A stretch of 62,793 nucleotides of DNA from a virus, in IMG/VR virus record IMGVR_UViG_3300023096_000006, positions 1 through 62,793 of that record; one strand, 5' to 3'. Positions 2,307-62,793 of the stretch are shown here, piece by piece (positions within the stretch are counted from its first letter, which is position 1; every line of letters starts with the position of its first letter). A program made the position numbers and the translations under genes. The notes beneath the pieces were generated by a model. That model ran no database searches, had not been told where the DNA came from, and saw only the letters and a list, made by a program, of their open reading frames with translations.

Positions 2307-2311
2307 CTTTG

Positions 2312-2385
2312 TAGCGCAGACGGGATTCGAACCCGCAGCATCACTGGGTCTGAGCCAATGTGGTCGTCCTGTTGCCTACCGCGCC
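2312..2385 (-). tRNA. tRNA-Leu(CAG), class I variable loop
   Basis: Acceptor GGCGCGG pairs with CTGCGCT, T-arm GCGGG-TTCGAAT-CCCGT, anticodon arm ATTGG-CTCAGAC-CCAGT. The anticodon CAG predicts leucine. The variable loop is only about six bases, whereas bacterial tRNA-Leu normally has a long variable arm, and the D-arm (GGCAACAGGACGACC) is weak, so the amino-acid identity is uncertain. It is the last tRNA of the array. Confidence 0.75.
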
Positions 2386-2397
2386 ATATGAAGTTGT

Positions 2398-2411
2398 CAC
2401 AGAGAATCCAT
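2398..2411. repeat. 14-bp inverted repeat, left copy
   Basis: CACAGAGAATCCAT here is the exact reverse complement of 3909-3922. The two copies bracket the tRNA block from Leu(TAG) to the second Pro(TGG). Confidence 0.5.
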
Positions 2412-2414
2412 TTG

Positions 2415-2496
2415 TAGCCCTCACGGGACTCGAACCCGCACACCACGAAGGTACTAGTTCCTAAGACTAGCGCGTCTACCATTCCGCCAAAGAGCC
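2415..2496 (-). tRNA. tRNA-Leu(TAG), class II
   Basis: Acceptor GGCTCTT / GAGGGCT, anticodon arm CTAGT-CTTAGGA-ACTAG (anticodon TAG), a long variable arm with an ACC/GGT stem and a GCGGG-TTCGAGT-CCCGT T-arm. This is the only leucine tRNA in the array with the long variable arm expected for bacteria. One base separates its 5' end from the upstream tRNA. Confidence 0.93.
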
Positions 2497-2497
2497 G

Positions 2498-2571
2498 TAG
2501 CGTAGACGGGATTCGAACCCGTATTCATCTTAGTATCTCGGACTAAGTGGTCTACCGTTGCCTACTACGCT
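2498..2571 (-). tRNA. tRNA-Leu(GAG), class I variable loop, identity uncertain
   Basis: Acceptor AGCGTAG / CTACGCT and T-arm ACGGG-TTCGAAT-CCCGT are perfect. The anticodon arm TTAGT-CCGAGAT-ACTAA gives anticodon GAG but places C rather than T at position 33. The variable loop is short. The D-arm (GGCAACGGTAGACC) closely resembles that of the Leu(CAG) gene at 2312-2385, suggesting a common origin. Confidence 0.7.
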
Positions 2572-2825
2572 ATGCAGAGAGTAACTATTGGTCAGTGTGG
2601 TTCCTACTACTGCCGTTCTTTACTTGTCTCGGGTCCTGCGGCCTCTCGAAAGAAACCACCCGTACCATTGAGACGTTCTTTACTTGGGGTCGTATTCTCC
2701 ACACCTCCGCAAGCTACTCTCTTCCGTGCCATTGCCCTCAGCCGGGGGGAGGAGTGTGCTCGGTTTCACGGTCTGCGCGCTTACCGCTCCTATGCACCTA
2801 CTTTCGGGCCGCTAAACCCTTTGCG
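2572..2825 (-). other. Gene-poor spacer in the tRNA array
   Basis: About 250 bases between tRNA-Phe and tRNA-Leu(GAG). No tRNA signature was found. A 41-codon frame (2607-2732, MARKRVACGGV...) has only a weak GAGGG before its ATG. Two copies of a 13-bp sequence (2614-2626 and 2674-2686) encode SKER twice in this frame. It is either a small gene or tRNA-spacer sequence. Confidence 0.4.
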
Positions 2826-2897
2826 TGGGAAAACGGGGAATCGAACCCCGGACTTCTGTGCTTCAAACAGACGCTTTACCGACTAAGCTATAATCCC
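2826..2897 (-). tRNA. tRNA-Phe(GAA)
   Basis: Anticodon arm TCTGT-TTGAAGC-ACAGA and T-arm CGGGG-TTCGATT-CCCCG are clear. The acceptor GGGATTA / TTTTCCC has two T-T mismatches at positions 5 and 6, so activity may be reduced or depend on an unusual fold. Confidence 0.87.
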
Positions 2898-3027
2898 AAA
2901 ATCCCGCACAGCCTGTCAGAGCCTCAGTGCAGGTTGTCTGGCGCGTACGGGCTATTCCAGACTCGCAATGTGTCCCTGACAGGACATCCCGTGCCACCTG
3001 TTGAAGTACAGTGTAGCCAAACTTGAG

Positions 3028-3096
3028 TCCTGTAGGAGAGAATCGAACTCTCGTGCGGTCGATTTACAGTCGAGGCCAGCGCCACGCCACTACAGG
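3028..3096 (-). tRNA. tRNA-Tyr(GTA), short variable loop
   Basis: Acceptor CCTGTAG / CTACAGG and T-arm GAGAG-TTCGATT-CTCTC are perfect; the loop CTGTAAA gives anticodon GTA. The variable region is about six bases, although bacterial tRNA-Tyr is normally class II with a long arm. Confidence 0.85.
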
Positions 3097-3183
3097 GTAG
3101 TTTTGCCATCCGAATATCGCATGGATGGCACCGCGCCCGGACTGGACTTACCGGGTGGAAGGTTCATGACTTCTTCCAGCTTG
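3097..3183 (-). other. Inter-tRNA spacer with 8-bp hairpin
   Basis: TGCCATCC (3104-3111) pairs with GGATGGCA (3123-3130). A 25-codon frame (3090-3167, MNLPPGKSSPG...) preceded by GGAAG overlaps the spacer and the tRNA-Tyr 5' end. Nothing here is strong enough to call a gene. Confidence 0.35.
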
Positions 3184-3255
3184 TAGTGCGTACGGGATTC
3201 GAACCCGTGCTGTCCAGCTTGAAAGGCTAGAGTACTTCCTGTATACGAACGCACC
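3184..3255 (-). tRNA. tRNA-Glu(TTC)
   Basis: Acceptor GGTGCGT / ACGCACT, anticodon arm CTAGC-CTTTCAA-GCTGG, T-arm ACGGG-TTCGAAT-CCCGT. One base separates it from the upstream Glu(CTC) tRNA. Confidence 0.92.
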
Positions 3256-3256
3256 G

Positions 3257-3327
3257 TAGCCCGTAGGGGAATCGAACCCCTGCTACAAGGCTGAGAACCT
3301 TGCGACCTACCATTAATCGAACGGGCC
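3257..3327 (-). tRNA. tRNA-Glu(CTC)
   Basis: Acceptor GGCCCGT / ACGGGCT, anticodon arm CAAGG-TTCTCAG-CCTTG, T-arm AGGGG-TTCGATT-CCCCT. With the neighbouring TTC tRNA it covers both glutamate codons. Confidence 0.92.
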
Positions 3328-3351
3328 ATAATCTTCTATTCAGTTGTGTGG

Positions 3352-3426
3352 CGTCCAAGACGAGATTTGAACTCGCGTTCTCCACCTTGACAGGGTGGCG
3401 GGGACTCCTGACTCCCCCACAAGGAC
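3352..3426 (-). tRNA. tRNA-Asp(GTC)
   Basis: Anticodon arm CCACC-CTGTCAA-GGTGG and T-arm GCGAG-TTCAAAT-CTCGT. The acceptor GTCCTTG / CTTGGAC has T-T mismatches at positions 5 and 6, the same defect as in the tRNA-Phe gene. Confidence 0.88.
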
Positions 3427-3491
3427 ATAGGCTGGGTTATTCTTCCTCGTAGACGAACCTGCGTTCGCACCAGCATCACTACGATGTATCG

Positions 3492-3565
3492 GGTGATAGA
3501 CGGGACTCGAACCCGCACACATCTGCTCCACAGGCAGACCATCAGCCTTTGAAAGTACTATCACC
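3492..3565 (-). tRNA. tRNA-His(GTG)
   Basis: Anticodon arm TCTGC-CTGTGGA-GCAGA, acceptor GTGATAG / CTATCAC, and the extra G(-1) opposite C73 that marks histidine tRNAs. T-arm GCGGG-TTCGAGT-CCCGT. Confidence 0.93.
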
Positions 3566-3609
3566 ATAGCGGGATTCGCCCTGTGGTGCACCACCTGACG
3601 TTTCCCTCG

Positions 3610-3681
3610 TCGGAATGGGGGGAATCGAACCCCCTCCTTCTCGGTCCCAAGCCGAGCGACCTCCCACTAGCCCACATTCCG
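3610..3681 (-). tRNA. tRNA-Pro(TGG), copy 1
   Basis: Acceptor CGGAATG / CATTCCG, anticodon arm CTCGG-CTTGGGA-CCGAG, T-arm GGGGG-TTCGATT-CCCCC. It has the same anticodon as the gene at 3833-3906 but a different body sequence. Confidence 0.92.
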
Positions 3682-3803
3682 ATGTCCCCGATGCTGGGTC
3701 GCTACGCCCAGGTCTTCCCTCTCCCCGAGGGTGCACTGCTCTATGCTACATCGCGGTTTAATGACGACGACGCTATACACTTACGTCCAACGGCTTTCAC
3801 CGT

Positions 3804-3820
3804 ACGGGAATCTAACCCGT
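3804..3820 (-). other. Orphan T-arm, probable tRNA remnant
   Basis: ACGGG-TTAGATT-CCCGT on the minus strand folds as a perfect tRNA T-arm with a C-to-A change in the TTC loop. No matching acceptor, D-arm or anticodon arm is present, because an intact tRNA-Pro lies where they should be. It looks like a decayed tRNA. Confidence 0.5.
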
Positions 3821-3832
3821 GCTTCCGTCTCG

Positions 3833-3906
3833 TCGGGATAACAGGATTCGAACCTGCGACTTCACGCTCCCAAAGCGCGCGCTCTACCAAGCTGAGCTAT
3901 ATCCCG
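3833..3906 (-). tRNA. tRNA-Pro(TGG), copy 2
   Basis: Acceptor CGGGATA / TATCCCG, D-arm GCTC...GAGC, anticodon arm CGCGC-TTTGGGA-GCGTG, T-arm GCAGG-TTCGAAT-CCTGT. It is the most canonical, bacteria-like tRNA of the array, suggesting a separate, more recent capture from a host. Confidence 0.93.
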
Positions 3907-3908
3907 AT

Positions 3909-3922
3909 ATGGATTCTCTGTG
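3909..3922. repeat. 14-bp inverted repeat, right copy
   Basis: ATGGATTCTCTGTG is the reverse complement of 2398-2411. It lies between tRNA-Pro copy 2 and the endonuclease gene. Confidence 0.5.
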
Positions 3923-3928
3923 GAGTTA

Positions 3929-4321
3929 TCAATCTGCGTGCCTAGCTAGGTAGGCGATTGCTAGAAGCAGTCTGTCCGGGTCATCCTTGAAAAGTCCAAG
4001 CCCCATGTTACATGAGGAGCAAAGCACTTCGCGTAGCTTTCCCGTCGTGTGATTGTGGTCCCAATGACTTTTCAAGAGAGTAACACTGTCGCCGCAAAGA
4101 GCACACTTACCGTTCTGCTTGTTTAGTTGTTCTAGCTTTTCCTCGGGTGAAGAATCGTATCTCGTTCGGTAGTGATACCGTGCGTTAGACGCCTGCACCT
4201 TGTCTCGGTTCTTAGCCCGCCACTCTCGCTTGTATTCGTTGTAACACGGTACGCAGTAAGAGTAACTGGACTTGAAATCCTCAACTGGCTTCTCTTGCAA
4301 ACACTTGGCACACGTTCTCAT
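3929..4321 (-). CDS. Recombination endonuclease VII-like HNH nuclease, 130 aa
   Basis: The protein has an N-terminal C4/C7 pair (CAKC) and YCVPC, then the endonuclease VII core: GKCALCG, SHWDHNHTTGKLREVLCSSCN and a DDPDRLLLAIAYL tail. The family resolves branched DNA, as T4 gp49 does, or acts as a free-standing HNH homing nuclease. The core lies in residues 70-130 with all four zinc cysteines and the DHNH histidines. The gene sits inside the tRNA array, between Met and Pro(TGG), and its ATG has no good ribosome-binding site. That position is also typical of a mobile HNH gene, so Holliday-junction resolution for packaging and homing are both open. Confidence 0.88.
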   Translation of the reverse strand: MRTCAKCLQEKPVEDFKSSYSYCVPCYNEYKREWRAKNRDKVQASNARYHYRTRYDSSPEEKLEQLNKQNGKCALCGDSVTLLKSHWDHNHTTGKLREVLCSSCNMGLGLFKDDPDRLLLAIAYLARHAD

Positions 4322-4379
4322 GTACTAAGTCTACTAGGGAAACTAGAGAAAAAGCTCTGTGGAGTTGTAGGTACAAATA

Positions 4380-4408
4380 AAGCCTCAGACTTTTCGAGTC
4401 CAAGGCTT
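4380..4408 (-). terminator. Hairpin upstream of the endonuclease gene
   Basis: AAGCCT...AGGCTT with an internal GACT/AGTC extension, followed on the minus strand by TTTATTT. It would cut read-through from the tRNA-Met promoter before the endonuclease gene. Confidence 0.6.
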
Positions 4409-4431
4409 AGAGTAGAGCGAATTTGCGCACT

Positions 4432-4482
4432 CTAAGCCAACCTGGGGTCTTCCAGGTGTAGCTCATAGTCAAACTTGCTCAT
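4432..4482 (-). CDS. Possible 16-residue leader peptide
   Basis: The frame MSKFDYELHLEDPRLA ends about 20 bases before the terminator at 4380-4408. Only AAGG occurs as a ribosome-binding site. Its position between a promoter-driven tRNA and a terminator would suit a leader peptide, but chance is not excluded. Confidence 0.25.
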   Translation of the reverse strand: MSKFDYELHLEDPRLA

Positions 4483-4526
4483 GTCTTAAACCTTACATCA
4501 TGTAAACGCCTTGTGGCGCTTACTCG

Positions 4527-4600
4527 TTACGGGGGAGGGAATCGAACCCTCAGTCGCGCAGGATATGAGCCTGGCCAGTTACCGTTACTTGCACCCCGTG
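4527..4600 (-). tRNA. tRNA with CAT anticodon (Met or Ile2)
   Basis: Anticodon arm CCAGG-CTCATAT-CCTGC (outer pair mismatched), T-arm GAGGG-TTCGATT-CCCTC, acceptor CACGGGG / CCCCGTA. The C1-A72 mismatch is a hallmark of bacterial initiator tRNA, but the three G-C anticodon-stem pairs of initiators are absent. Elongator Met or lysidine-modified Ile are therefore at least as likely. Confidence 0.82.
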
Positions 4601-4622
4601 CCATTGTTTTCAGTTGTACTCA

Positions 4623-4651
4623 TTTTTACGTCTCAGAATCTGATTTGTCAA
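4623..4651 (-). promoter_or_regulatory. Promoter TTGACA-N17-TAAAAA
   Basis: -35 TTGACA (4646-4651), spacer of 17 ending GACG, -10 TAAAAA (4623-4628). It lies between tRNA-Gly and tRNA-Met, giving the lower part of the tRNA array its own start. Confidence 0.72.
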
Positions 4652-4662
4652 ACTGAGTTTCG

Positions 4663-4733
4663 CACCCCGTCGAGGAATCGAACCCCGGTCTGGCGGGTTG
4701 GAGCCGCACATGTTACCACTACACCAACGAGAT
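4663..4733 (-). tRNA. tRNA-Gly(TCC)
   Basis: Acceptor ATCTCGT / ACGGGGT (two G-T wobbles), D-arm GTGT...ACAT, loop CTCCAAC giving anticodon TCC, T-arm CGGGG-TTCGATT-CCTCG. The outer anticodon-stem pair is a T-C mismatch. Confidence 0.88.
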
Positions 4734-4746
4734 ATGTGTTGAATTA

Positions 4747-4765
4747 TCTAGTGTACACCATTTCT
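4747..4765 (-). repeat. 19-bp repeat with GTGTACAC palindrome, copy 2
   Basis: Identical to 266-284. Here it fills the gap between tRNA-Leu(CAA) and tRNA-Gly, ending 13 bases before the tRNA-Gly 5' end, a place suited to a promoter or operator. Confidence 0.55.
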
Positions 4766-4773
4766 GATGTCCG

Positions 4774-4848
4774 TGCCCTAGGTGGGAATCGAACCCACAA
4801 ACCCCAAGGTTTGAGCTTGGTCCATATACCGAATTCTGGTACTAGGGC
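4774..4848 (-). tRNA. tRNA-Leu(CAA), class I variable loop
   Basis: Acceptor GCCCTAG / CTAGGGC, anticodon arm CCAAG-CTCAAAC-CTTGG, T-arm GTGGG-TTCGATT-CCCAC, all perfect. The variable loop is only five bases, atypical for leucine. First tRNA of the array. Confidence 0.85.
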
Positions 4849-54095: not shown

Positions 54096-55133
54096 TTACG
54101 CGACGTTGGCGTAGACAATCTGCTCAGGCTTGTTCAGGACTGGCAGGAAGTGCCACTCTAGAAGGTACTGGCGAGCCGATGGGTCTGGCTCGAAGAAGGT
54201 CTTGGCGAACTTACCCGTGTAACCCTGAGGTGCAGCAAGGTCAGCGGTTGGTCCGACAACCATTTCGAACGGACGGCCATCGGTGAAGTTACCGAAGACA
54301 ATGCGGTTGTCCGCAAGGAACTTCTGCTCAGCGCCTGGGTCCGTTGGGTTTGGCCCGTAGGATGCGCCAGTAGCGTCGAAGACGGAATCCTGGATGTGCC
54401 AGTCAATTCCGAGGAAGTTAGGAAGCGTACCGTTACCGTAGTACTGGTCCTTCATGCGGTCAGACAGAAGGAACGCTGGGGTGCTTCCTGCCAGGGCGAA
54501 GGAGTCGAAGATGCGAGTAATGGTCTGCTCAGAAGCATAAGCCTCACGTGCAGGAACCTGTCCATCGCGGTCAACAAGGCGCTTCCAAGCGCGAACGTCA
54601 GCAATAATCTGCTGAGGCGTAGCGGTGGCCCAAGGGGTACCGGCGCTTGGCTTGTGGGAAGCTGGCAGCTTGTAGTCAACGTAAACGTCGGGGGAGTCAC
54701 CCTCGCCGTCCTTGGCCTTGACGTCGATGACACCGGTGAGCATCTGCCAGATGGCGTACTCAGCGAAGTTGTCGAAACGACGGTTGAGGTCTTCAAGCTC
54801 ACGCTTGACGGCCTTCTCAGCGTTGACCTTAGCAATCTCACCTGGAGTACGTACCCAGTAGAGAGTCGTTGGGCTGAAGACCTTCTTCTCACGCAGGTAG
54901 AGGAAGGCAGCAGTCAGCGTCTCGCGACCAAGCTGAGGCACGATGTGGGCCTCAGAGTTTGGAACGTTTGGTCGCGCGATAGCTCGGCTACCACGGGTTA
55001 CGTCCCACTGTGCTGTTGGGAACGGGTGCGGAGTCTTGTCGATGCGGTTAAGCATCGTTAGAGTCTCCGGTGCCGTGAACTTCTCAACGACACCCAGCAG
55101 CACCGTAGGCTGGAAGAGTGAAATGTCAGGCAC
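54096..55133 (-). CDS. Major capsid protein (lambda gpE family)
   Basis: 345 residues with gpE-type features: an N-terminal start ISLFQPTVLLGVVEKFTAPETLTMLNRI, PNSEAHIVPQLGRETLTAAFLYLREKKVFSPTTLYWVRTPGE (E-loop and spine helix region), then YAIWQMLTGVI and a C-terminal FAKTFFEPDPSARQYLLEWHFLPVLNKPEQIVYANV typical for this family. It follows the decoration gene, as in lambda D-E. The GTG start has AGGAG. Late motif 55251-55261 and a long leader precede it, and a strong terminator follows. Confidence 0.93.
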   Translation of the reverse strand: MPDISLFQPTVLLGVVEKFTAPETLTMLNRIDKTPHPFPTAQWDVTRGSRAIARPNVPNSEAHIVPQLGRETLTAAFLYLREKKVFSPTTLYWVRTPGEIAKVNAEKAVKRELEDLNRRFDNFAEYAIWQMLTGVIDVKAKDGEGDSPDVYVDYKLPASHKPSAGTPWATATPQQIIADVRAWKRLVDRDGQVPAREAYASEQTITRIFDSFALAGSTPAFLLSDRMKDQYYGNGTLPNFLGIDWHIQDSVFDATGASYGPNPTDPGAEQKFLADNRIVFGNFTDGRPFEMVVGPTADLAAPQGYTGKFAKTFFEPDPSARQYLLEWHFLPVLNKPEQIVYANVA

Positions 55134-55337: not shown

Positions 55338-55748
55338 TTAGAACTTGAAAGTTCCGAATACGTCGTTGGCTACAGCGCCCATAGGCGTCAGTAGGTTGGT
55401 AACTCCACCGTTGGCGGAAGAAACCTTAGACAGCTTCAGGATACCGGCGATAACGACGTTGCCCATGTAGGCCTGTCCGTTAACGTCATTTCCTGTTTCG
55501 ACGGACTTACGAAGTACGCCGATTGGAGTACCGGTTCCATCGCCACCACCGTTAGTCCACTTCTCGTACATACGAGTAGAGGTGCGGCGTGCGAGGACGG
55601 TTCCTCCTAGTAGGAGACCCTTACCCGGTGCTAGCTTGACGCCCTTCTGGGTGAAGCCAACGGTCGAGTACAGAATCTCGTCGTTCTGAATGTAGGCACC
55701 ACGACTAAATCCAGCGGCTGGAATGTCGTTACCAATCTGGTCTACCAT
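55338..55748 (-). CDS. Head decoration protein, lambda gpD-like, 136 aa
   Basis: Located between scaffold and capsid genes, the place of lambda D. Sequence features fit: an N-terminal AAGFSRGAYIQNDEILYSTVGFTQKGVKLAPGKGLLLGGTVLARR, GTPIGVLRKSVETGNDVNGQAYMGNVVIAGILKLSKV, and a short C-terminus. gpD trimers stabilise the expanded capsid at threefold points. GGAGAAG precedes the ATG. Confidence 0.83.
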   Translation of the reverse strand: MVDQIGNDIPAAGFSRGAYIQNDEILYSTVGFTQKGVKLAPGKGLLLGGTVLARRTSTRMYEKWTNGGGDGTGTPIGVLRKSVETGNDVNGQAYMGNVVIAGILKLSKVSSANGGVTNLLTPMGAVANDVFGTFKF

Positions 55749-55793: not shown

Positions 55794-56288
55794 TTATAGA
55801 GCGGAGAGGCGAGCGATTTCCTGGGAAACAGTCTCGTCGTGCGCCTCGTCCTTGATGTCTTCACCAAACTCAGCGGAGAGAGAAACAAATGGCTTCTCAG
55901 GCAGAAGCTCCTCGAACAGTTCAGAGTTCGAAAGCAGAAGCTTTAGCTGGGACTCACGCTTGGCTGGGGAAATGAATCCACCCTTAACCAGGCTGTCGAT
56001 ACGAGCCTCGGCCTTGGCAGTTGCGCTCTCCTGGACAAGTGTGTCTACCTTGGCAGATAGGTCAACTCGGTCCTGTGCTAGCTGAGAAACAGCAGATACG
56101 AGGTCTTCAGCCGTTGGGTTCTCACCCTCGGCAGCAGAAAGTCGCAGGACGCCGGTCTCGTTAAGAGCAGTCTGAAGGTCTGCGGAAAGCTTGGCAAGAG
56201 AACCTGCGCCAGCCGCCGCCTTCTGAAGCTCAGGAATGTTGATACCGTGCTCGTCACGTGCGACGGCAATCAGTTCATCGAGTTCCAT
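55794..56288 (-). CDS. Nested scaffold protein, 164 aa
   Basis: Within the protease gene an in-frame ATG at 56288 has a near-perfect AAAGGAGGG seven bases upstream and starts MELDELIAVARDEHG... The protein is helical with a coiled-coil middle (VSAVSQLAQDRVDLSAKVDTLVQESATAKAEARIDSL) and an acidic C-terminus, as scaffolds are. A late-motif copy (56345-56353) lies about 57 bases upstream, inside the protease coding region, so the scaffold has both its own transcript and its own start. The layout corresponds to lambda C/Nu3. Confidence 0.8.
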   Translation of the reverse strand: MELDELIAVARDEHGINIPELQKAAAGAGSLAKLSADLQTALNETGVLRLSAAEGENPTAEDLVSAVSQLAQDRVDLSAKVDTLVQESATAKAEARIDSLVKGGFISPAKRESQLKLLLSNSELFEELLPEKPFVSLSAEFGEDIKDEAHDETVSQEIARLSAL

Positions 56289-56870
56289 TTTGGAACCCTC
56301 CTTTGTGTTATTGGTTGCGGCAGTAAGCAATACGGCCTTAGTTGTACTATCGCTCATACCAGACGCGCTTGCTGCAAGTACTTCTTCAAAGTCATCAAGC
56401 TCAGTCAGGTGAGGTCTATTTGTGATAGCGACGTGAAGAAGCGCAGGACCGGCCTTCTTTCCCGTGCGAGTATCTGTGTAATCCAGGGACAACATGGCAG
56501 AAGCACCAATGAGGGTCTTACCCAGCTTCTCAGCCGCAGCCGCATCGCGTGCATCAATAACGGAGTACAGCTTTCCGTTATCAACTTCCAGTCCGACAAC
56601 CTCACCGATGTTACGGAAAGGGTCTTCGCTGTGAGCGTTGTTGTCTCCCACTACAGGAGTCTGAACGATAGGACAAACCTTGTTGTCGAAGTTCTCGGAA
56701 AGCTTGGCTAGGAATTCATCAGTGATTTCTACCTTGCCGCCCTTGACGCCAGGATAGTGAAGAGTTCCCTTAGACAGAATGTGCTTTCGGAATAGACGAC
56801 CAGACTTGGTGCGGGATAGCGGAATAAAGCTATCGTCCTCACCAGGCACGTAAACAAGTTCGTCGTTCAT
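55794..56870 (-). CDS. Prohead protease fused to scaffold, 358 aa
   Basis: Residues 1-165 resemble the Mu gpI-like prohead protease: SGRLFRKHILSKGTLHYPGVKGGKVEITDEFLAKLSENF, then VCPIVQTPVVGDNNAHSEDPFRNIGEVVGLEVDNGKLYSVIDARD and LLHVAITNRPHLTELDDFEEV (the ALT-x-x-P-like end). A linker (TTKAVLLTAATNNTKEGS) leads to the scaffold part. The protease should cut scaffold and itself before DNA filling. The start codon follows shortly after the late motif at 56874-56885. Confidence 0.83.
   Translation of the reverse strand: MNDELVYVPGEDDSFIPLSRTKSGRLFRKHILSKGTLHYPGVKGGKVEITDEFLAKLSENFDNKVCPIVQTPVVGDNNAHSEDPFRNIGEVVGLEVDNGKLYSVIDARDAAAAEKLGKTLIGASAMLSLDYTDTRTGKKAGPALLHVAITNRPHLTELDDFEEVLAASASGMSDSTTKAVLLTAATNNTKEGSKMELDELIAVARDEHGINIPELQKAAAGAGSLAKLSADLQTALNETGVLRLSAAEGENPTAEDLVSAVSQLAQDRVDLSAKVDTLVQESATAKAEARIDSLVKGGFISPAKRESQLKLLLSNSELFEELLPEKPFVSLSAEFGEDIKDEAHDETVSQEIARLSAL
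56345..56353 (-). promoter_or_regulatory. Internal late motif GCGATAGTA for the nested scaffold
   Basis: GCGATAGTAC inside the protease coding sequence, preceded by ATGA as at several other copies. It would produce a separate mRNA for the nested scaffold and decoration protein. Confidence 0.7.
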
Positions 56871-57170: not shown

Positions 57171-57468
57171 CCCCTCTCATCTGCGCCTTGTAGGCAGATA
57201 GGTCAGCGGGGGCTAGCTTGCGAAATACCCAGCGTCCTCGGTTTACTGTGTTGACTAGCCAATAGTTGTCCTTTTCCTCAACATCAGTGATGTATAGCTC
57301 ATAGCTCATCGCTGGGTTCGGAAATAGCGTAGTGAAGACAGAGCCGTCTTCACGGTTGTCTGCTACACGTAGGACTGAGCGCGCGTCAATATCAGAGCGC
57401 TCACTGATGGCCTGGAATGCGCCACCAAAGAAGCTCTGGATTCTCTTCTTTAGGTCGTCTGCTTCCAT
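57154..57468 (-). CDS. Unknown head-region protein, 104 aa
   Basis: MEADDLKKRIQSFFGGAFQAISERSDIDARSVLRVADN... then beta strands (FTTLFPNPAMSYELYITDVEEKDNYWLVNTVNRGRWVFRKL). The start overlaps the giant gene's end by 19 bases and the end overlaps the next start, so the three are translated as a coupled set. No known family. Confidence 0.65.
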   Translation of the reverse strand: MEADDLKKRIQSFFGGAFQAISERSDIDARSVLRVADNREDGSVFTTLFPNPAMSYELYITDVEEKDNYWLVNTVNRGRWVFRKLAPADLSAYKAQMRGDGFSV

Positions 57469-60400
57469 GTCTCTTTCACCTTCTGAATGCTGGCCTGGAG
57501 ATTCATTCTCATGACCAAGCGCTCCTCAATAGGAAGTCCTCGAATTGTTTCCAGTCCAAGGGCCTTCAACTTCTGAATCTGTGCCTCACGCTTAGACTGG
57601 TCGCCTTCCTCGAAGACGATGAACTCAACGCCGTCCAGAACTGTAGCCATGTGAGGTGTCATCAACTCACCGCCTGCACCCATGTGATTGTCAATAAGGT
57701 CCATGAGGTCAGACTGTGTATCACTCTTACGAGAGTCAAGCTTACCGTACTGGTCACCTGTCAGAACGTATGTTCTAGTTCTGAGCATAAGACGTGGGCT
57801 GAGCACGTAGTTGTAGTGCTGCAATCCCGATGCGTCTACCAGACGGGTGTAAATCTGGTGGGACGCACCGTTGTTCTGGTCAGAGATTGGAGAGCTACTT
57901 CCGTATCCTCCACCAGTGAAAATCTTTCCAAGCTGGCGAATACGCTCTTCTCCACCAAGAAGTCCACCGTGCTCAATCTCATCCAGGTTTCCAGCCGTGT
58001 TACCGGAGGAGTGGCCCAGCCAGGCGTTACGCTCCATGAGTTCATCGAACGTCACATCAAAGCGCTCCCAGTAAGGCTTACCGGTCGAGAGGTCAGGGTC
58101 CTGAATGTTCTGGTGGTCAAACTTAGGCAAGTAGCCTTCGGTGTCCACAAGCTTGGTGACCTTCTCAGCGAACTGCGTAGACCACAGGTCACGCCAGTAT
58201 TGAACTTCCTCGTCGGGAGTCATGGAAGCTGACAGGTTCTCCAGGAACTGGTTCTCCTTGCCTCCTACTTCCTTGACCTTCTTCTTCATCTCGGAATAGA
58301 CCTTGAAGAACTTTTCGCTCTTCGCACCTTCGTGGTTACGGTTCTCCAGGATGGAGTACATTTCACGCCAGTAGGTAAGCTCAGCGTCCGTGTGGTCGGC
58401 TGCATGGTTGTCAATGCCCATGACTGACATGAACTCCTGAATGCGCGCCATAGAGGCGGCTACAGCCGTTGGCTCACCCGTGTTAGGGATGTGGAACGAC
58501 AGCTTTCCGTGCTGACCCCTAGACGTGTTTGTGTGGTCAGCGTTGCGCCAGTAAATCTTCTCTCCTGTAGGAAGAGTCGCCTGGAACTCCTGACCTTCCG
58601 CACCGGAGGAAACAGAGGCGTAGTTCACTACCTTGACGTTTGTCTTGGGGTCGTGGGTTCCGTGCTTCTCGTGCGTGTAGCTGTTCTTGGTAAAGACAGC
58701 GCCCAGCGGTGTACCATCCTCTTCAGGCGTGTCGATACCCAGACTGCTCGTGTATCCCTCAGACTTCAGCGCAGAAATCTCGTCGCCCGAAAGCTCCTGA
58801 AGTGAGACTCCGCTTTCGTTAGAGACAAGCCACTTACCTTGCGCCATTGATACCAGCTTGGTAGTACCGTCGCTACTCGTCAGAATCTCTGTCTGCGCCG
58901 CTGGAGCGATAGTCGTGTAAGCGTTGACGACAGGAGCCTTCTCCTGCTTGTCATACGCGTTCTTGACAAGCGTGTACTTCTCGCTGTAGTACTCCAGCAT
59001 GAGCTTGTACTGGGGCAAGTGCTCCATAGGTACGGTACGTCCGGTCTTGAACTTGTAGGCGTCCAGACCATTAGCAGACGAATTGGACTGAAGGGTTGAG
59101 GACCACTCCGCAAGCTCATTAGTAATGAACTCCATATTGGCATCGAATTCGCCAATGGTGCTCGCGTTGTAAGCCTTGTCGTCAAAGTGCTGGTTGACGG
59201 TCTTGGCAGCGGAGATAAGAGAGTTCTGGTATGTATCGTAGTTGGCGAAAGAAGTAGAAACCACCTGAGGCGCAGACTCTCCCGCGTACTTTGTGAAGAA
59301 CGCCAGAGCTTCTTCCTGAGCCTTAGGCGCAAGATAAGCCTCTCCCATTACCTGCTGAGAACCGGTTTCGTCCTGCTCATTCCAAACCAGAACCGTTCCA
59401 CCGATAACCTGTGAACCACCAATCATGGCGGTCTTACCAGATGCCTTGGACTGGAATACCTGCTCGTGAAGCTCAGGGCTGTCCATACCGGAGATAATGC
59501 CCTCAGCCAAGGCAGGAACAACTACCTCAGGTGGCTCTCCGTAGCCTGCCTTCTTGTAAAGCACGGCCCACTCGGACTCAACCTTTTCAACCAGCTTGCT
59601 CTTCTGGTCGGCAAAAGCGGCCTTCAATCCCTCGACATCCTGGGAAACGGTCTTCCCGTCAATCTGGTAGCCGATGGTCCAAGAAGGACGGTTAGCCGAA
59701 CCTTCCTCAATGAGCTTGAAGAACTTCTCGTTATCGGCCTTCTGCATCCGGCGAGCCGTCTTCAGGAGCTTGTTGTAGGCGGCATCCATCGTCTCCTTAG
59801 AAACGTCGCCATGGCTAATTGCGTCATACAGACGCGTGTAGATAGAGAGGTTTCCATCGGGAGCGTCGTGGTTCCAGTCCACAACACCGTAGTCCTTGAA
59901 AGAGCGGGCCTTGTCGATACCTACAACGTTTCCAAAAGAGGTCACAATGGCGTTATCAGCCTTCGTGTCATCATTCTGGAGAAGCCAATCCAGCATGTGC
60001 TCACCCTCGATGTCAGCAAGCATCGTTGGAGAGATTGTGGAGTAGTCGAACCCCGTAAGGTCGCCAATGCCGTCCACCTTGGACTGCAACTGCATGTAGT
60101 GACCGTCCTGGTTGACAAGCTTGCTGTTGGCCGTCTTAAAGCCAAAGGCACGACCAATCAGGTTACCGGCGTGCTCAATCTCCAGACGGTAGTTAGAAAG
60201 CTGGTCTTCGTAGTCCCACCACTTGGCGTAGAACTTGTTTCCGAACTGGTCGGTGTAGTACGCGCCAGGATGTGAACCCTTAGTCTGTCCAGCTTCCTTG
60301 GTGTAAACCGGAATCAGCTTCTCAGCCTCATAGGCTTCGTGCTTTACCTGGAAGTACTGCTTCACAACAGCCAGAGCAGTAGCCTTCTTGTAAGACTCTC

Positions 60401-62793
60401 CCCAGGATTCCCAGTCTTCCGTCATCCCCCAGGTGTCCTTACCGTACGTCTCGGCATTGGCCTGAAGTTCAGGGATGCTGTCCTTGTTGTCGTTGAACCA
60501 GTCGAAGGCAGCAACCTTTCCGCCATAGCCGTCCCACTGTGTGGGGAAGTCCGTGTCCTGGAAGTACTTGTCGTAAGACTTGACAGGCTTAACGTCATCT
60601 GTCCAGCTAAGTGGCGGGCTCTTTGGCTCTGCCCCCTGCGCGGCAAGCTGCTTCGCGTGTGAGGAGTAGGAGTCAACAGTCTCCTTGTCACCAGTAAGGT
60701 GAGCGATTGCCCAAGCGTGCTTCTGTGAACCGGTGAGATAAGTAGGATTTTGCATTTGCGCCTTGATGAGGTAGTTGTTTGTCTCGTCCATGGACCAATC
60801 AAGTCCAGGGTCCGACCATGTACCCTCTACCTTTACACCAGCGGGCAGTTCTCCCGCAACTGCTGCGCCCCACTTGACGTTGTGAGTTTCCGAATTGTCT
60901 GGGTAACCTGGGTGCGCGTAGCCCTGAGGAAGAGACTTTCCAGAAGACACAGCGGCGTTGAACTCGACGTTGTAGGCCTGCTTGAAGTTTCCGGCCTTCA
61001 CATAAGAAGCCCAGTTCAACTTCTGCTGCTTGTCCATCGTTCCAGGAAGCTGACCGATGACCTTACCGTCGCCAAACATCGCTGAAATTGTCTTTACGAC
61101 CTGTGTCGCTTCAGACGCTGACGCGTAGTAATAGTTGGGCACGGCAAAAGACACCAAGCCCTCAGGAGGAAGCGCGTACCCAAGCTCGTCATAGTTGAAG
61201 AGCTTCGTCGTATCTACATCAGGAACAGTCGTGTCCAGAGAATCCAACGTAGCGTCAATGTGCTCAGAGAAGTACTTCTTGACATTGGCAGGCGTGTACT
61301 CGTCATATACCTCTAGAAGCTTAGCCTTTCCAAGAACAGCATCCATGCCTCCCAGGCCAGCATTCTTCAACACAGTTCCAACAGACGTGTCACCAGTCTC
61401 CGAAAGGAACTTCTTTGCCTTCAAAAGCGTGATGGCATCTGTCCCGGCTCCGAACCAGTACAGGTTTCCTGAGTAGTTCTTAGGCAGCACAGAAGTACCC
61501 GTAGAGTCCAACAGCTTTCCCGTAAGGAATTTCGTCTTCAGAGAAGCCTTCGTGACCTTAACGGAATCTTCCTGGCCCAGACTTTCAATCCTGTACTTGT
61601 TCAAGTACCAGCCTTTTAGGTAACCTTCTGTTCCACTATCCGACTTCCAGGTACCATCTTCCTGCTTCGTAATAACGTCAGCAAAGTACTTAGACGAAAC
61701 TTGCGAGCCCACCGGTGCGGTATCTACAAAGGTGGAATCAGGCTTCTGGCCTAGCTTGTATTCTCCCCAAGAGGACTTAGGCTTCGTGTGAGAAACCTCA
61801 GCGCCAGCAACCTCGAATACCTGAGCCTTAGGACTTGTAGGAACGCCTAGGAAGTACTTACCATCAGGAAGCTGACTGATGTCTCCGACACTCTTCTTGG
61901 TAGAAGGAGATGTAGATAGGGATTCCTCAGTGCTGACCTTCGGTGGACCTACCTTGTCAATGGCATAGATGTTGAAGCCTTCGTCCCACTTCTTCTTGAC
62001 GCCAGCAACATCCAGTGCAGTCGTCTTACCGGCAAGGCCAGCGTAGACGCCCGTACCGTCTTCGTTGATGAAGAGAGCGGTCTTTCCACCCTTCAGGTAC
62101 TTTCCGGGCTGTAGCTTGTGTGGGTTCTGAGGTTCAGGGAAACTCTCATAGAGGTCTGGTACATCCTTGAGAGCATCAGCCATGTCTCCATCAGAAAGAA
62201 CCCAAGAAGAGTTGTCATTCAGAGCATATGCAGTGTAGGAGCCATTCGCCATTTTCTGGTAAACAATGACACCCGACTTGTGCTTGAAGACTGTCAAACC
62301 AGACATGCTGTTCAGGTCTTCAGCGGTCAGTGTCTTGCTCTGCTCAACACCTACCTGCTCAGCGGCAGACTCAGGAGCTTGCGTGTACTCCTGCTCGCTG
62401 TACTCAATGTCTGGAGATTCAGCCTCAACACCAGGAGCATCTTCCTTGTGCACTTCTCCTGGTGCAGCGTCGTACTTGACCGTTCCCATCTTGAAGAACG
62501 TCTTGAACTCGGGAGGTTCCCACGTGGAGTTCATATTAGGTTCGCCGTCAGGGTTGATGAAGTTCCAGTTCTCAGACTTCTTGATGAACTTAGTGCCATT
62601 TACACTGATGGTCGTGTCCAGGGGAAGGCTGTCTAGAGAATCTTCGTCTGGAAGATTATCTCCCTGCACGTAAGAAACCTCTGGAAGGTCTACTTCTGGA
62701 GTATCTTCAGGCCCACTCTTGTACGTAACGAACTTGCTCTTAATAGCGCCACCGAAAGAATTCGAACTGATTCCCTTGGCTCCATCCACAGCA
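57450..62793 (-). CDS. Giant head-associated protein with kinase-like and ADP-ribosyltransferase-like regions, 5' partial
   Basis: The frame is open to the window edge; at least 1779 residues are present, N-terminus missing. Residues 1-450 hold repeated small beta modules (LQPGKYLKGGKTALFINEDGTGVY; LPDGKYFLGVP). Near 836-965 is a kinase/HipA/PI3K-like pattern: GAYYTDQFGNKFYAKWW (Lys), LEIEHAGNLIGRAFG (Glu), LLQNDDTKADNAIV (catalytic D..N) and VVGIDKARSF (metal Asp). Near 1590-1685, HSSGNTAGNLDEIEHGGLL, NGASHQIYTRL and LMLRTRTYVLTGDQYGKL resemble ADP-ribosyltransferase/DarT-like folds. Position upstream of the protease suggests a virion head protein, possibly injected with DNA. Enzyme roles are inferences. 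Confidence 0.75.
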   Translation of the reverse strand, partial: AVDGAKGISSNSFGGAIKSKFVTYKSGPEDTPEVDLPEVSYVQGDNLPDEDSLDSLPLDTTISVNGTKFIKKSENWNFINPDGEPNMNSTWEPPEFKTFFKMGTVKYDAAPGEVHKEDAPGVEAESPDIEYSEQEYTQAPESAAEQVGVEQSKTLTAEDLNSMSGLTVFKHKSGVIVYQKMANGSYTAYALNDNSSWVLSDGDMADALKDVPDLYESFPEPQNPHKLQPGKYLKGGKTALFINEDGTGVYAGLAGKTTALDVAGVKKKWDEGFNIYAIDKVGPPKVSTEESLSTSPSTKKSVGDISQLPDGKYFLGVPTSPKAQVFEVAGAEVSHTKPKSSWGEYKLGQKPDSTFVDTAPVGSQVSSKYFADVITKQEDGTWKSDSGTEGYLKGWYLNKYRIESLGQEDSVKVTKASLKTKFLTGKLLDSTGTSVLPKNYSGNLYWFGAGTDAITLLKAKKFLSETGDTSVGTVLKNAGLGGMDAVLGKAKLLEVYDEYTPANVKKYFSEHIDATLDSLDTTVPDVDTTKLFNYDELGYALPPEGLVSFAVPNYYYASASEATQVVKTISAMFGDGKVIGQLPGTMDKQQKLNWASYVKAGNFKQAYNVEFNAAVSSGKSLPQGYAHPGYPDNSETHNVKWGAAVAGELPAGVKVEGTWSDPGLDWSMDETNNYLIKAQMQNPTYLTGSQKHAWAIAHLTGDKETVDSYSSHAKQLAAQGAEPKSPPLSWTDDVKPVKSYDKYFQDTDFPTQWDGYGGKVAAFDWFNDNKDSIPELQANAETYGKDTWGMTEDWESWGESYKKATALAVVKQYFQVKHEAYEAEKLIPVYTKEAGQTKGSHPGAYYTDQFGNKFYAKWWDYEDQLSNYRLEIEHAGNLIGRAFGFKTANSKLVNQDGHYMQLQSKVDGIGDLTGFDYSTISPTMLADIEGEHMLDWLLQNDDTKADNAIVTSFGNVVGIDKARSFKDYGVVDWNHDAPDGNLSIYTRLYDAISHGDVSKETMDAAYNKLLKTARRMQKADNEKFFKLIEEGSANRPSWTIGYQIDGKTVSQDVEGLKAAFADQKSKLVEKVESEWAVLYKKAGYGEPPEVVVPALAEGIISGMDSPELHEQVFQSKASGKTAMIGGSQVIGGTVLVWNEQDETGSQQVMGEAYLAPKAQEEALAFFTKYAGESAPQVVSTSFANYDTYQNSLISAAKTVNQHFDDKAYNASTIGEFDANMEFITNELAEWSSTLQSNSSANGLDAYKFKTGRTVPMEHLPQYKLMLEYYSEKYTLVKNAYDKQEKAPVVNAYTTIAPAAQTEILTSSDGTTKLVSMAQGKWLVSNESGVSLQELSGDEISALKSEGYTSSLGIDTPEEDGTPLGAVFTKNSYTHEKHGTHDPKTNVKVVNYASVSSGAEGQEFQATLPTGEKIYWRNADHTNTSRGQHGKLSFHIPNTGEPTAVAASMARIQEFMSVMGIDNHAADHTDAELTYWREMYSILENRNHEGAKSEKFFKVYSEMKKKVKEVGGKENQFLENLSASMTPDEEVQYWRDLWSTQFAEKVTKLVDTEGYLPKFDHQNIQDPDLSTGKPYWERFDVTFDELMERNAWLGHSSGNTAGNLDEIEHGGLLGGEERIRQLGKIFTGGGYGSSSPISDQNNGASHQIYTRLVDASGLQHYNYVLSPRLMLRTRTYVLTGDQYGKLDSRKSDTQSDLMDLIDNHMGAGGELMTPHMATVLDGVEFIVFEEGDQSKREAQIQKLKALGLETIRGLPIEERLVMRMNLQASIQKVKETWKQTT

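What the first reader, a model, noticed from the sequence alone, without database searches (positions are those of the whole stretch)
57450..62793. Giant head protein joining a kinase-like and an ADP-ribosyltransferase-like region
At least 1779 residues lie in one frame upstream of the protease. The middle shows a Lys / Glu / D..N / D-x-x-x-S-F arrangement like HipA or phosphatidylinositol kinase-type folds (YAKWW, IEHAG, DDTKADNAIV, GIDKARSF). The end shows H-SSGN, YTRL, LRTRTYV and DQYGKL as in ART/DarT-type proteins. A packaged protein carrying both enzyme types could modify host targets on entry or control capsid maturation. I know of no described system with this combination.
Basis: inference. 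Interest (0 to 1): 0.82.

Follow-up and report, generated by a model that had tools for sequence, protein, structure and literature searches.

The report
Giant phage head protein with two enzymes
This phage encodes a giant protein in its head-building gene block that combines a well-supported protein-kinase-type domain with a probable ADP-ribosyltransferase-type domain, and its relatives suggest it is loaded into the virus particle and delivered into the bacterium on infection.

Summary
One frame is open from 57450 to the contig end (1780 aa, 5' end cut off; relatives suggest about 2,850 aa in full), upstream of a head-maturation protease and the major capsid gene. The kinase half is well supported: AlphaFold2 pLDDT 92.7; Foldseek hits are kinases (CtkA, PI3K and HipA among them); one relative matches Pfam PI3_PI4_kinase (E=7e-6); Lys857, Asp942 and Asp960 are invariant in 29 domains, Asn947 is Asn in 22 and Gln in 7. 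The combination recurs: kinase plus ART or ART-like C-terminus in nearly all relatives with a complete 3' end, including M. abscessus/chelonae MabR prophage proteins already annotated 'minor capsid-ART fusion' (kinase unannotated). Two N-terminal docking modules alternate: MuF/VG15, or a ~30-aa motif (RxVRTxEGAxxYGxPIGxxI) that also occurs on unrelated head-region proteins of actinophages and resembles a capsid-targeting signal. Most likely a virion-packaged, injected dual-enzyme effector: a new variant of the MuF-toxin/polyvalent-protein theme.

The parts
57450..62792 (-). Giant head-locus protein, 1780 aa, 5' truncated at the contig end; roughly 1,080 N-terminal residues estimated missing from the alignment to L038 (2853 aa; window residue 156 aligns with L038 residue 1235)
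59553..60290 (-). Kinase-like domain, residues 835-1080 (PI3K/PI4K-HipA-CtkA type)
   Evidence: HMM of 29 domains; AF2 pLDDT 92.7, pTM 0.88; Foldseek
60222..60224 (-). Lys857 codon (ATP-binding Lys), invariant 29/29
59967..59969 (-). Asp942 codon (catalytic D of DxHxxN), invariant 29/29; the H position (944) is Lys here, His in 21 and Lys in 8 of 29
59952..59954 (-). Asn947 codon (metal-binding N), Asn in 22 and Gln in 7 of 29
59913..59915 (-). Asp960 codon (metal-binding D of GIDK), invariant 29/29
58113..58475 (-). Helical domain before the C-terminal domain, residues 1440-1560
   Evidence: AF2 model m33063b70b8ec
57453..58103 (-). C-terminal domain, residues 1564-1780; candidate DarT/HYE-type ART
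58011..58013 (-).
57942..57944 (-). Arg1617 codon, invariant 21/21; possible counterpart of DarT R51
   Evidence: DarT residues from PMC9967889
57666..57668 (-). Glu1709 codon, invariant 23/23, first residue of a predicted strand; possible catalytic Glu
55794..56870 (-). Head maturation protease (358 aa), next recognised gene downstream
   Evidence: PHROG phrog_976 E=3.8e-7
55338..55748 (-). 136-aa conserved head-block protein
   Evidence: tblastn to 10 relatives
54096..55133 (-). Major capsid protein
   Evidence: PHROG phrog_29 E=1.8e-30

Best explanation
The gene encodes a head-cargo effector of the polyvalent-protein kind. During head assembly its N-terminus (off this contig; in nearly all giant relatives where it was seen a ~30-residue motif, in one a MuF-like domain) docks it to the inside of the prohead near the portal or scaffold, possibly with trimming by the maturation protease. 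A few copies then leave with the DNA at infection. Inside the cell the kinase-like domain phosphorylates (or otherwise transfers a nucleotide-derived group to) a host target, and the C-terminal DarT/HYE-like domain ADP-ribosylates a protein or nucleic acid, to take over the cell or blunt its defences. Shown here: the gene, its head-block position in about 10 relatives, the kinase fold and conserved catalytic residues, the recurrent pairing with an ART or ART-like C-terminus, and the shared head motif. Inferred: packaging, injection, catalytic activity, targets.
For: Kinase: AF2 pLDDT 92.7; 1035 Foldseek PDB matches with E<=0.001, the listed top 50 essentially all kinases including CtkA (TM about 0.5), PI3Kgamma (0.45) and HipA (0.38); Pfam PI3_PI4_kinase in L002 (7e-6), L008 (4e-5), L061 (1e-5); K857/D942/D960 29/29. 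ART-like: three best PDB folds are all ARTs; R1617, E1709 invariant. Pairing: in the kinase-only scan 13 of 14 non-duplicate relatives with complete 3' ends carry an ART (PF03496 or its RSE motif) or the ART-like domain; in the C-terminus-only scan every relative with enough upstream sequence carries the kinase. Packaging: head-block position; VG15/MuF fusion in MuF-type relatives; head motif shared with portal and small head proteins.
Against: No virion proteomics or enzyme assay. The window lacks the N-terminus, so its own docking module is not seen. ART fold match is not significant (E>=0.2), no curated Pfam match in 23 members, no profile similarity to the PF03496 ART domains, and the H of the HYE motif is lost in most relatives. 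The window's catalytic loop has Lys where PI3K/HipA and most relatives have His. One relative (L024) has the kinase alone in what looks like a tail-gene block. The motif is not always N-terminal.
Confidence: 0.6

Rival explanations
1. Only the kinase is an enzyme; the C-terminal domain is an unrelated fold (docking, binding or anchoring) that replaced the ART at the same position.
For: No significant fold or family match for the C-terminal domain; no profile similarity to the PF03496 ARTs; His lost in most members.
Against: Top PDB folds are ARTs, invariant Arg and Glu with the Glu starting a predicted strand, same position as true ARTs in MuF-type relatives.
Confidence: 0.3
2. A structural giant: both domains are retained pseudo-enzymes acting as spacers or head-assembly modules near the portal.
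For: Great length and weakly conserved linkers; H-to-K in the catalytic loop; very large, likely processed virion proteins are known in Microbacterium phages (PMC7302621).
Against: Kinase Lys/Asp/Asp invariant across very divergent members; the two domains are more conserved than the rest against the closest relatives; true ARTs occupy the same slot in relatives.
Confidence: 0.15
3. An assembly-time modifier: the kinase or ART modifies portal, scaffold or capsid to time maturation.
For: Gene lies directly upstream of the maturation protease; the motif also occurs on portal proteins.
Against: MuF-fused ARTs are generally interpreted as delivered effectors (PMC5576092; PMC9503650); motif-bearing ARTs also occur away from head genes (ObLaDi).
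Confidence: 0.12
4. A prophage-expressed toxin used against competitors or superinfecting phages rather than a virion component.
For: MabR prophages carry separate polymorphic toxin systems (PMC9434293).
Against: Head-block position, MuF or motif docking modules, no candidate immunity gene recognised next to it.
Confidence: 0.08

Closest known systems
Minor capsid-ADP-ribosyltransferase fusion proteins of cluster MabR prophages (McProf, prophiFSQJ01-1 and others)
   Same: Same kinase domain (24-26% identity), between portal and scaffold/capsid genes, C-terminal ART
   Different: About 1,180 aa with VG15/MuF N-terminus and RSE-type PF03496 ART; kinase not annotated; Gln at the Asn position
MuF polymorphic toxins (PMC5576092)
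   Same: Head protein fused to a C-terminal toxin-like enzyme, ARTs among them
   Different: No MuF domain found in the motif-bearing giants (one giant, L049, has a MuF-like motif); two enzyme-like domains instead of one; the word kinase does not occur in that paper
Polyvalent proteins of phages and conjugative elements (PMC5512222)
   Same: Several effector-type domains in one long polypeptide encoded with virion genes; ARTs and protein kinases both reported
   Different: Their kinases are a truncated STYK group from Verrucomicrobia-Chlamydia and Bacteroidetes (pro)phages, not PI3K/HipA type; the typical partner domains (MPTase, ArdC) were not found here
CtkA / HipA / PI3-PI4 kinases
   Same: Fold, ATP Lys, DxHxxN and D motif
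   Different: No hipB-like neighbour recognised; His replaced by Lys in the window; fused in a head protein
DarT (DNA-thymidine ADP-ribosyltransferase)
   Same: Third-best PDB fold match; H-x-S start in the window, invariant Arg and Glu
   Different: Match not significant; H not conserved in homologues; DNA specificity unknown
T4 capsid-targeting sequence and P1 DarB N-terminal signal (PMC3012670, PMC9024508)
   Same: Short N-terminal sequence shared by otherwise different injected head proteins (T4), or sufficient to load a reporter (P1)
   Different: Unrelated sequence; here also on portal proteins and sometimes internal; sufficiency untested

Membership tests
PI3K/HipA/CtkA-type kinase superfamily | Kinase fold | tested here: met
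PI3K/HipA/CtkA-type kinase superfamily | ATP Lys, catalytic Asp, metal Asn and Asp | tested here: met
   K857, D942, D960 29/29; N947 Asn 22, Gln 7
PI3K/HipA/CtkA-type kinase superfamily | His in DxHxxN | tested here: not met
   Lys in the window; His in 21 of 29 domains
PI3K/HipA/CtkA-type kinase superfamily | Curated Pfam cut-off reached | tested here: not met
   No Pfam hit for the window protein; relatives score just below the cut-off: L002 26.5 and L061 26.0 against 27.1 bits
HipA toxin-antitoxin kinases | Adjacent antitoxin gene | tested here: not met
   Flanked by head genes downstream and, in L002, a small motif-bearing protein and the portal upstream
ART superfamily, DarT/HYE clade | ART fold | tested here: inconclusive
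   Top 3 PDB hits are ARTs, E 0.2-0.94, prob 0.09-0.21
ART superfamily, DarT/HYE clade | His of motif I | tested here: not met
   H1594 is present in the window but His in only 7 of 19 sequences
ART superfamily, DarT/HYE clade | Catalytic Glu (and Arg for DarT) | tested here: inconclusive
   E1709 23/23 and R1617 21/21 are invariant, but their equivalence to DarT E160/R51 was not shown by a structural alignment
ART superfamily, DarT/HYE clade | NAD+-dependent transfer | not testable with these tools
   needs biochemistry
MuF/VG15 minor capsid toxins | MuF or VG15 domain | tested here: inconclusive
   N-terminus missing in the window; no MuF Pfam hit in the full-length giants L002, L008 and L010; MuF-like Cys/His motif by eye in giant L049
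Polyvalent proteins | Two or more effector-type domains in one head-locus polypeptide | tested here: inconclusive
   One domain firm (kinase), second probable (ART-like); head locus met
Capsid-targeting sequence | Short sequence shared by otherwise unrelated head proteins of one phage | tested here: met
   For relatives, not for the window; two motif-bearing proteins each in Magritte, GMA2, DalanDe and L002
Capsid-targeting sequence | Sufficient to package a reporter | not testable with these tools
   needs an experiment

The most novel reading that the evidence does not exclude
Phages of actinobacteria and their uncultured kin share a general head-loading address: a ~30-residue motif, [RK]xVRTxEGAxxYGxPIGxxI(T), at or near the N-terminus of otherwise unrelated cargo (kinase plus ART-like giants, GNAT-like, metallopeptidase-like, ART and 2H-like proteins), on small head proteins and on portal C-termini. 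With it, kinase-ART pairs and other enzymes are swapped as injected effectors, interchangeably with MuF.
Probability: 0.45. Interest if true: 0.82.

Novelty: new variant of a known kind. Interest (0 to 1): 0.64.

Why it matters
If right, a phage injects one polypeptide carrying two chemically different modifying enzymes, a kinase and an ADP-ribosyltransferase; no paper found here describes a PI3K/HipA-type kinase and an ART together in a head protein (literature searches; open-access library only). The kinase half is unannotated in M. abscessus/chelonae prophage head proteins. The shared motif gives a simple, testable rule for spotting packaged effectors in a large group of phages, and a possible handle for loading reporter proteins into their heads.

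Tried and rejected
Direct DNA match in phages: none. Pfam on the window protein: nothing. PHROGs: only unknown-function families, weak. RcPutin/Rhodobacter ART hits to the N-terminal motif: antisense, rejected as chance. One of 52 pattern hits (L097, a short ORF whose following residues do not resemble the motif) also judged chance. Genome scan with the giant's kinase found no confirmed relative; with the MuF-type kinases only three MAG contigs. Fetching DarT sequences for a profile comparison failed. Profile comparison of the C-terminal domain with PF03496 ARTs: no similarity. Motif alignment A3 too degenerate for the protein scan, replaced by a DNA pattern scan. Capsid-maturation control: no supporting evidence.
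Full report
WHAT IS THERE. The window is a linear 62,793-base IMG/VR virus record, 54% G+C, with 14 tRNA genes. A single minus-strand frame runs from 57450 to the contig end: 1780 residues with no start inside the contig that can be called the true one. The next recognised genes downstream are a head maturation protease (55794-56870) and the major capsid protein (54096-55133).

RELATIVES. tblastn against 50,697 phage records gave five hits, all cluster MabR prophages of Mycobacterium abscessus or M. chelonae, matching only residues 828-1099 at 24-26% identity, in proteins annotated 'minor capsid and ADP-ribosyltransferase domain fusion'; in the two read in context the gene lies between portal and scaffold/capsid genes. 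IMG/VR scans gave full-length or nearly full-length relatives: L002 (3236 aa), L008 (2806), L010 (3361), L038 (2853; 59% identity), L037 (58%), L041, L044, L039, L045, and more distant ones. The alignment to L038 puts window residue 156 at L038 residue 1235, so about 1,080 residues are probably missing from the window protein. Protease, a 136-aa protein and capsid genes follow in the same order in 9-10 of these loci.

KINASE. An HMM built from residues 835-1080 collects 29 domains in 27 proteins. Lys857, Asp942 and Asp960 are invariant; Asn947 is Asn in 22 and Gln in 7; the His of DxHxxN is His in 21 and Lys in 8, Lys in the window. L002, L008 and L061 match Pfam PI3_PI4_kinase at 7e-6, 4e-5 and 1e-5, all below the curated cut-off, the nearest by 0.6 bits. 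AlphaFold2 gives pLDDT 92.7 and pTM 0.88. Foldseek returns 1035 PDB matches with E<=0.001, the 50 listed being essentially all kinases; the best TM-scores in that list are CtkA of Helicobacter (about 0.5) and PI3Kgamma (0.45), with HipA at 0.38.

C-TERMINAL DOMAIN. 23 sequences align. The model has pLDDT 86.6 and pTM 0.85. The three best PDB matches are SopF (twice) and DarT, all ADP-ribosyltransferases, but with E 0.2-0.94 and probability at most 0.21. In the viral library the best-supported matches (probability 0.97, E about 0.03) are uncharacterised proteins of Pithovirus LCPAC406 and Invertebrate iridescent virus 6 (422L). Pfam gives DarT for one of 23 members at E=0.13. DarT needs an Arg (R51) and a Glu (E160) (PMC9967889), so Arg1617 and Glu1709 are candidates for those roles; that equivalence is inference. 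There is no profile similarity to the PF03496 ARTs of the MuF-type relatives. I put the chance that this domain is an ART at about 0.65.

THE PAIR RECURS. Of the non-duplicate relatives from the kinase-only scan with a complete 3' end, 13 of 14 have an ART (PF03496 or its R-S-E motif) or this ART-like domain at the C-terminus; L024 is the exception. All relatives from the C-terminus-only scan with enough upstream sequence have the kinase. L018 and L019 have two kinase domains. PF03496 was not called on every MabR copy: it was called on the BK061312 and McProf proteins and on L013, L017 and L021, and read from the alignment for L012 and L014; L015 and L016 are taken as MabR copies by length and kinase similarity.

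DOCKING MODULES. MuF-type relatives start with VG15 or Phage_Mu_F; one giant, L049, has a MuF-like Cys/His motif by eye. The other giants whose N-terminus was seen start with RxVRTxxGAxxYGxPIGxxI or a close variant. The same motif begins or lies in other proteins, most of them in the portal-capsid interval: Magritte gp17 (GNAT-like, E=0.0012) and gp14, Cantare gp11 and DalanDe gp21/gp22 (metallopeptidase-like by their HEIGH motif), GMA2 gp10 (weak 2H/Acb1 Pfam matches; ART motifs by eye) and gp13, Forza gp80 (PF03496 ART) and gp85. It also occurs in ART proteins ObLaDi gp133, whose gene lies away from the head genes (a weak match, E=0.0027 with the motif HMM), and L078. An exact DNA pattern found 52 matches in 43 stretches of 2.9 million contigs; all but one lie in open frames with the motif kept, including what look like portal proteins (L062, which is on L038's own contig, L066, L085) and small ~120-aa proteins, one of them directly upstream of the giant in L002. 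Many of these contigs are near-duplicates of each other. Motif-bearing ORFs over 200 aa fall into 11 BLAST groups. The motif is not seen in the window because the N-terminus is missing. It is internal (about residue 480) in Chidieberevirus and GMA6 proteins, so it may be an assembly or processing motif and not only an address. The motif HMM was built from pattern-selected sequences, so its E-values are partly circular.

CONSTRAINT. Against L037 and L038 the kinase and C-terminal domains are 0.69-0.77 identical and other regions 0.49-0.55; dN/dS computed for these two lies between 0.11 and 0.30, with dS close to saturation and not computable in one region. Against more distant relatives the contrast is weaker.

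LITERATURE. MuF toxins with ARTs (PMC5576092), polyvalent proteins with ARTs and a different kinase group (PMC5512222), virion ARTs fused to MuF (PMC9503650), MuF-VIP2 fusions and giant head genes in Microbacterium phages (PMC7302621), capsid-targeting signals in T4 and P1 (PMC3012670, PMC9024508) were read in part. The searches returned no paper describing a PI3K/HipA-type kinase in a phage head protein; the library holds open-access papers only and was searched by words, so this is not proof of absence.

LIMITS. Only one kinase model and one C-terminal model were made; no coordinates could be inspected, so active-site geometry was not checked. Hosts are inferred from relatives (Mycobacterium, Gordonia, Microbacterium, Brevibacterium), not shown for this virus. 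Packaging, injection and catalysis are inference.

Noticed in passing
L002 4585-4944 and 5039-5180; L025, L026, L027, L028, L031, L036, L058-L100: A ~30-residue motif (RxVRTxEGAxxYGxPIGxxI) shared by otherwise unrelated head-region proteins, several copies per phage, including portal C-termini.
   Followed up: partly
L030 5950-8571 (Gordonia phage ObLaDi gp133): A PF03496 ART protein bearing a weak copy of the motif but encoded away from the head genes, among small hypothetical genes.
   Followed up: partly
L024 4490-5785: The kinase as a stand-alone 431-aa protein, apparently in a tail-gene block upstream of a likely tape measure gene; the only complete relative without an ART or ART-like C-terminus.
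   Followed up: partly
L018 8780-13504 and L019 8438-13276: Two tandem kinase domains plus the ART-like C-terminus, with neither a recognised MuF domain nor the motif at the N-terminus.
   Followed up: no
L061 3013-6837: Motif, a peptidoglycan-binding domain (PF01471) and a partial PI3/PI4-kinase match in one ORF.
   Followed up: no
window 2311-4848: Cluster of 14 tRNA genes on the minus strand.
   Followed up: no
window 57453-58475 (C-terminal domain model m33063b70b8ec): Structural resemblance (probability 0.97, E about 0.03) to uncharacterised proteins of Pithovirus LCPAC406 and Invertebrate iridescent virus 6 (422L).
   Followed up: no
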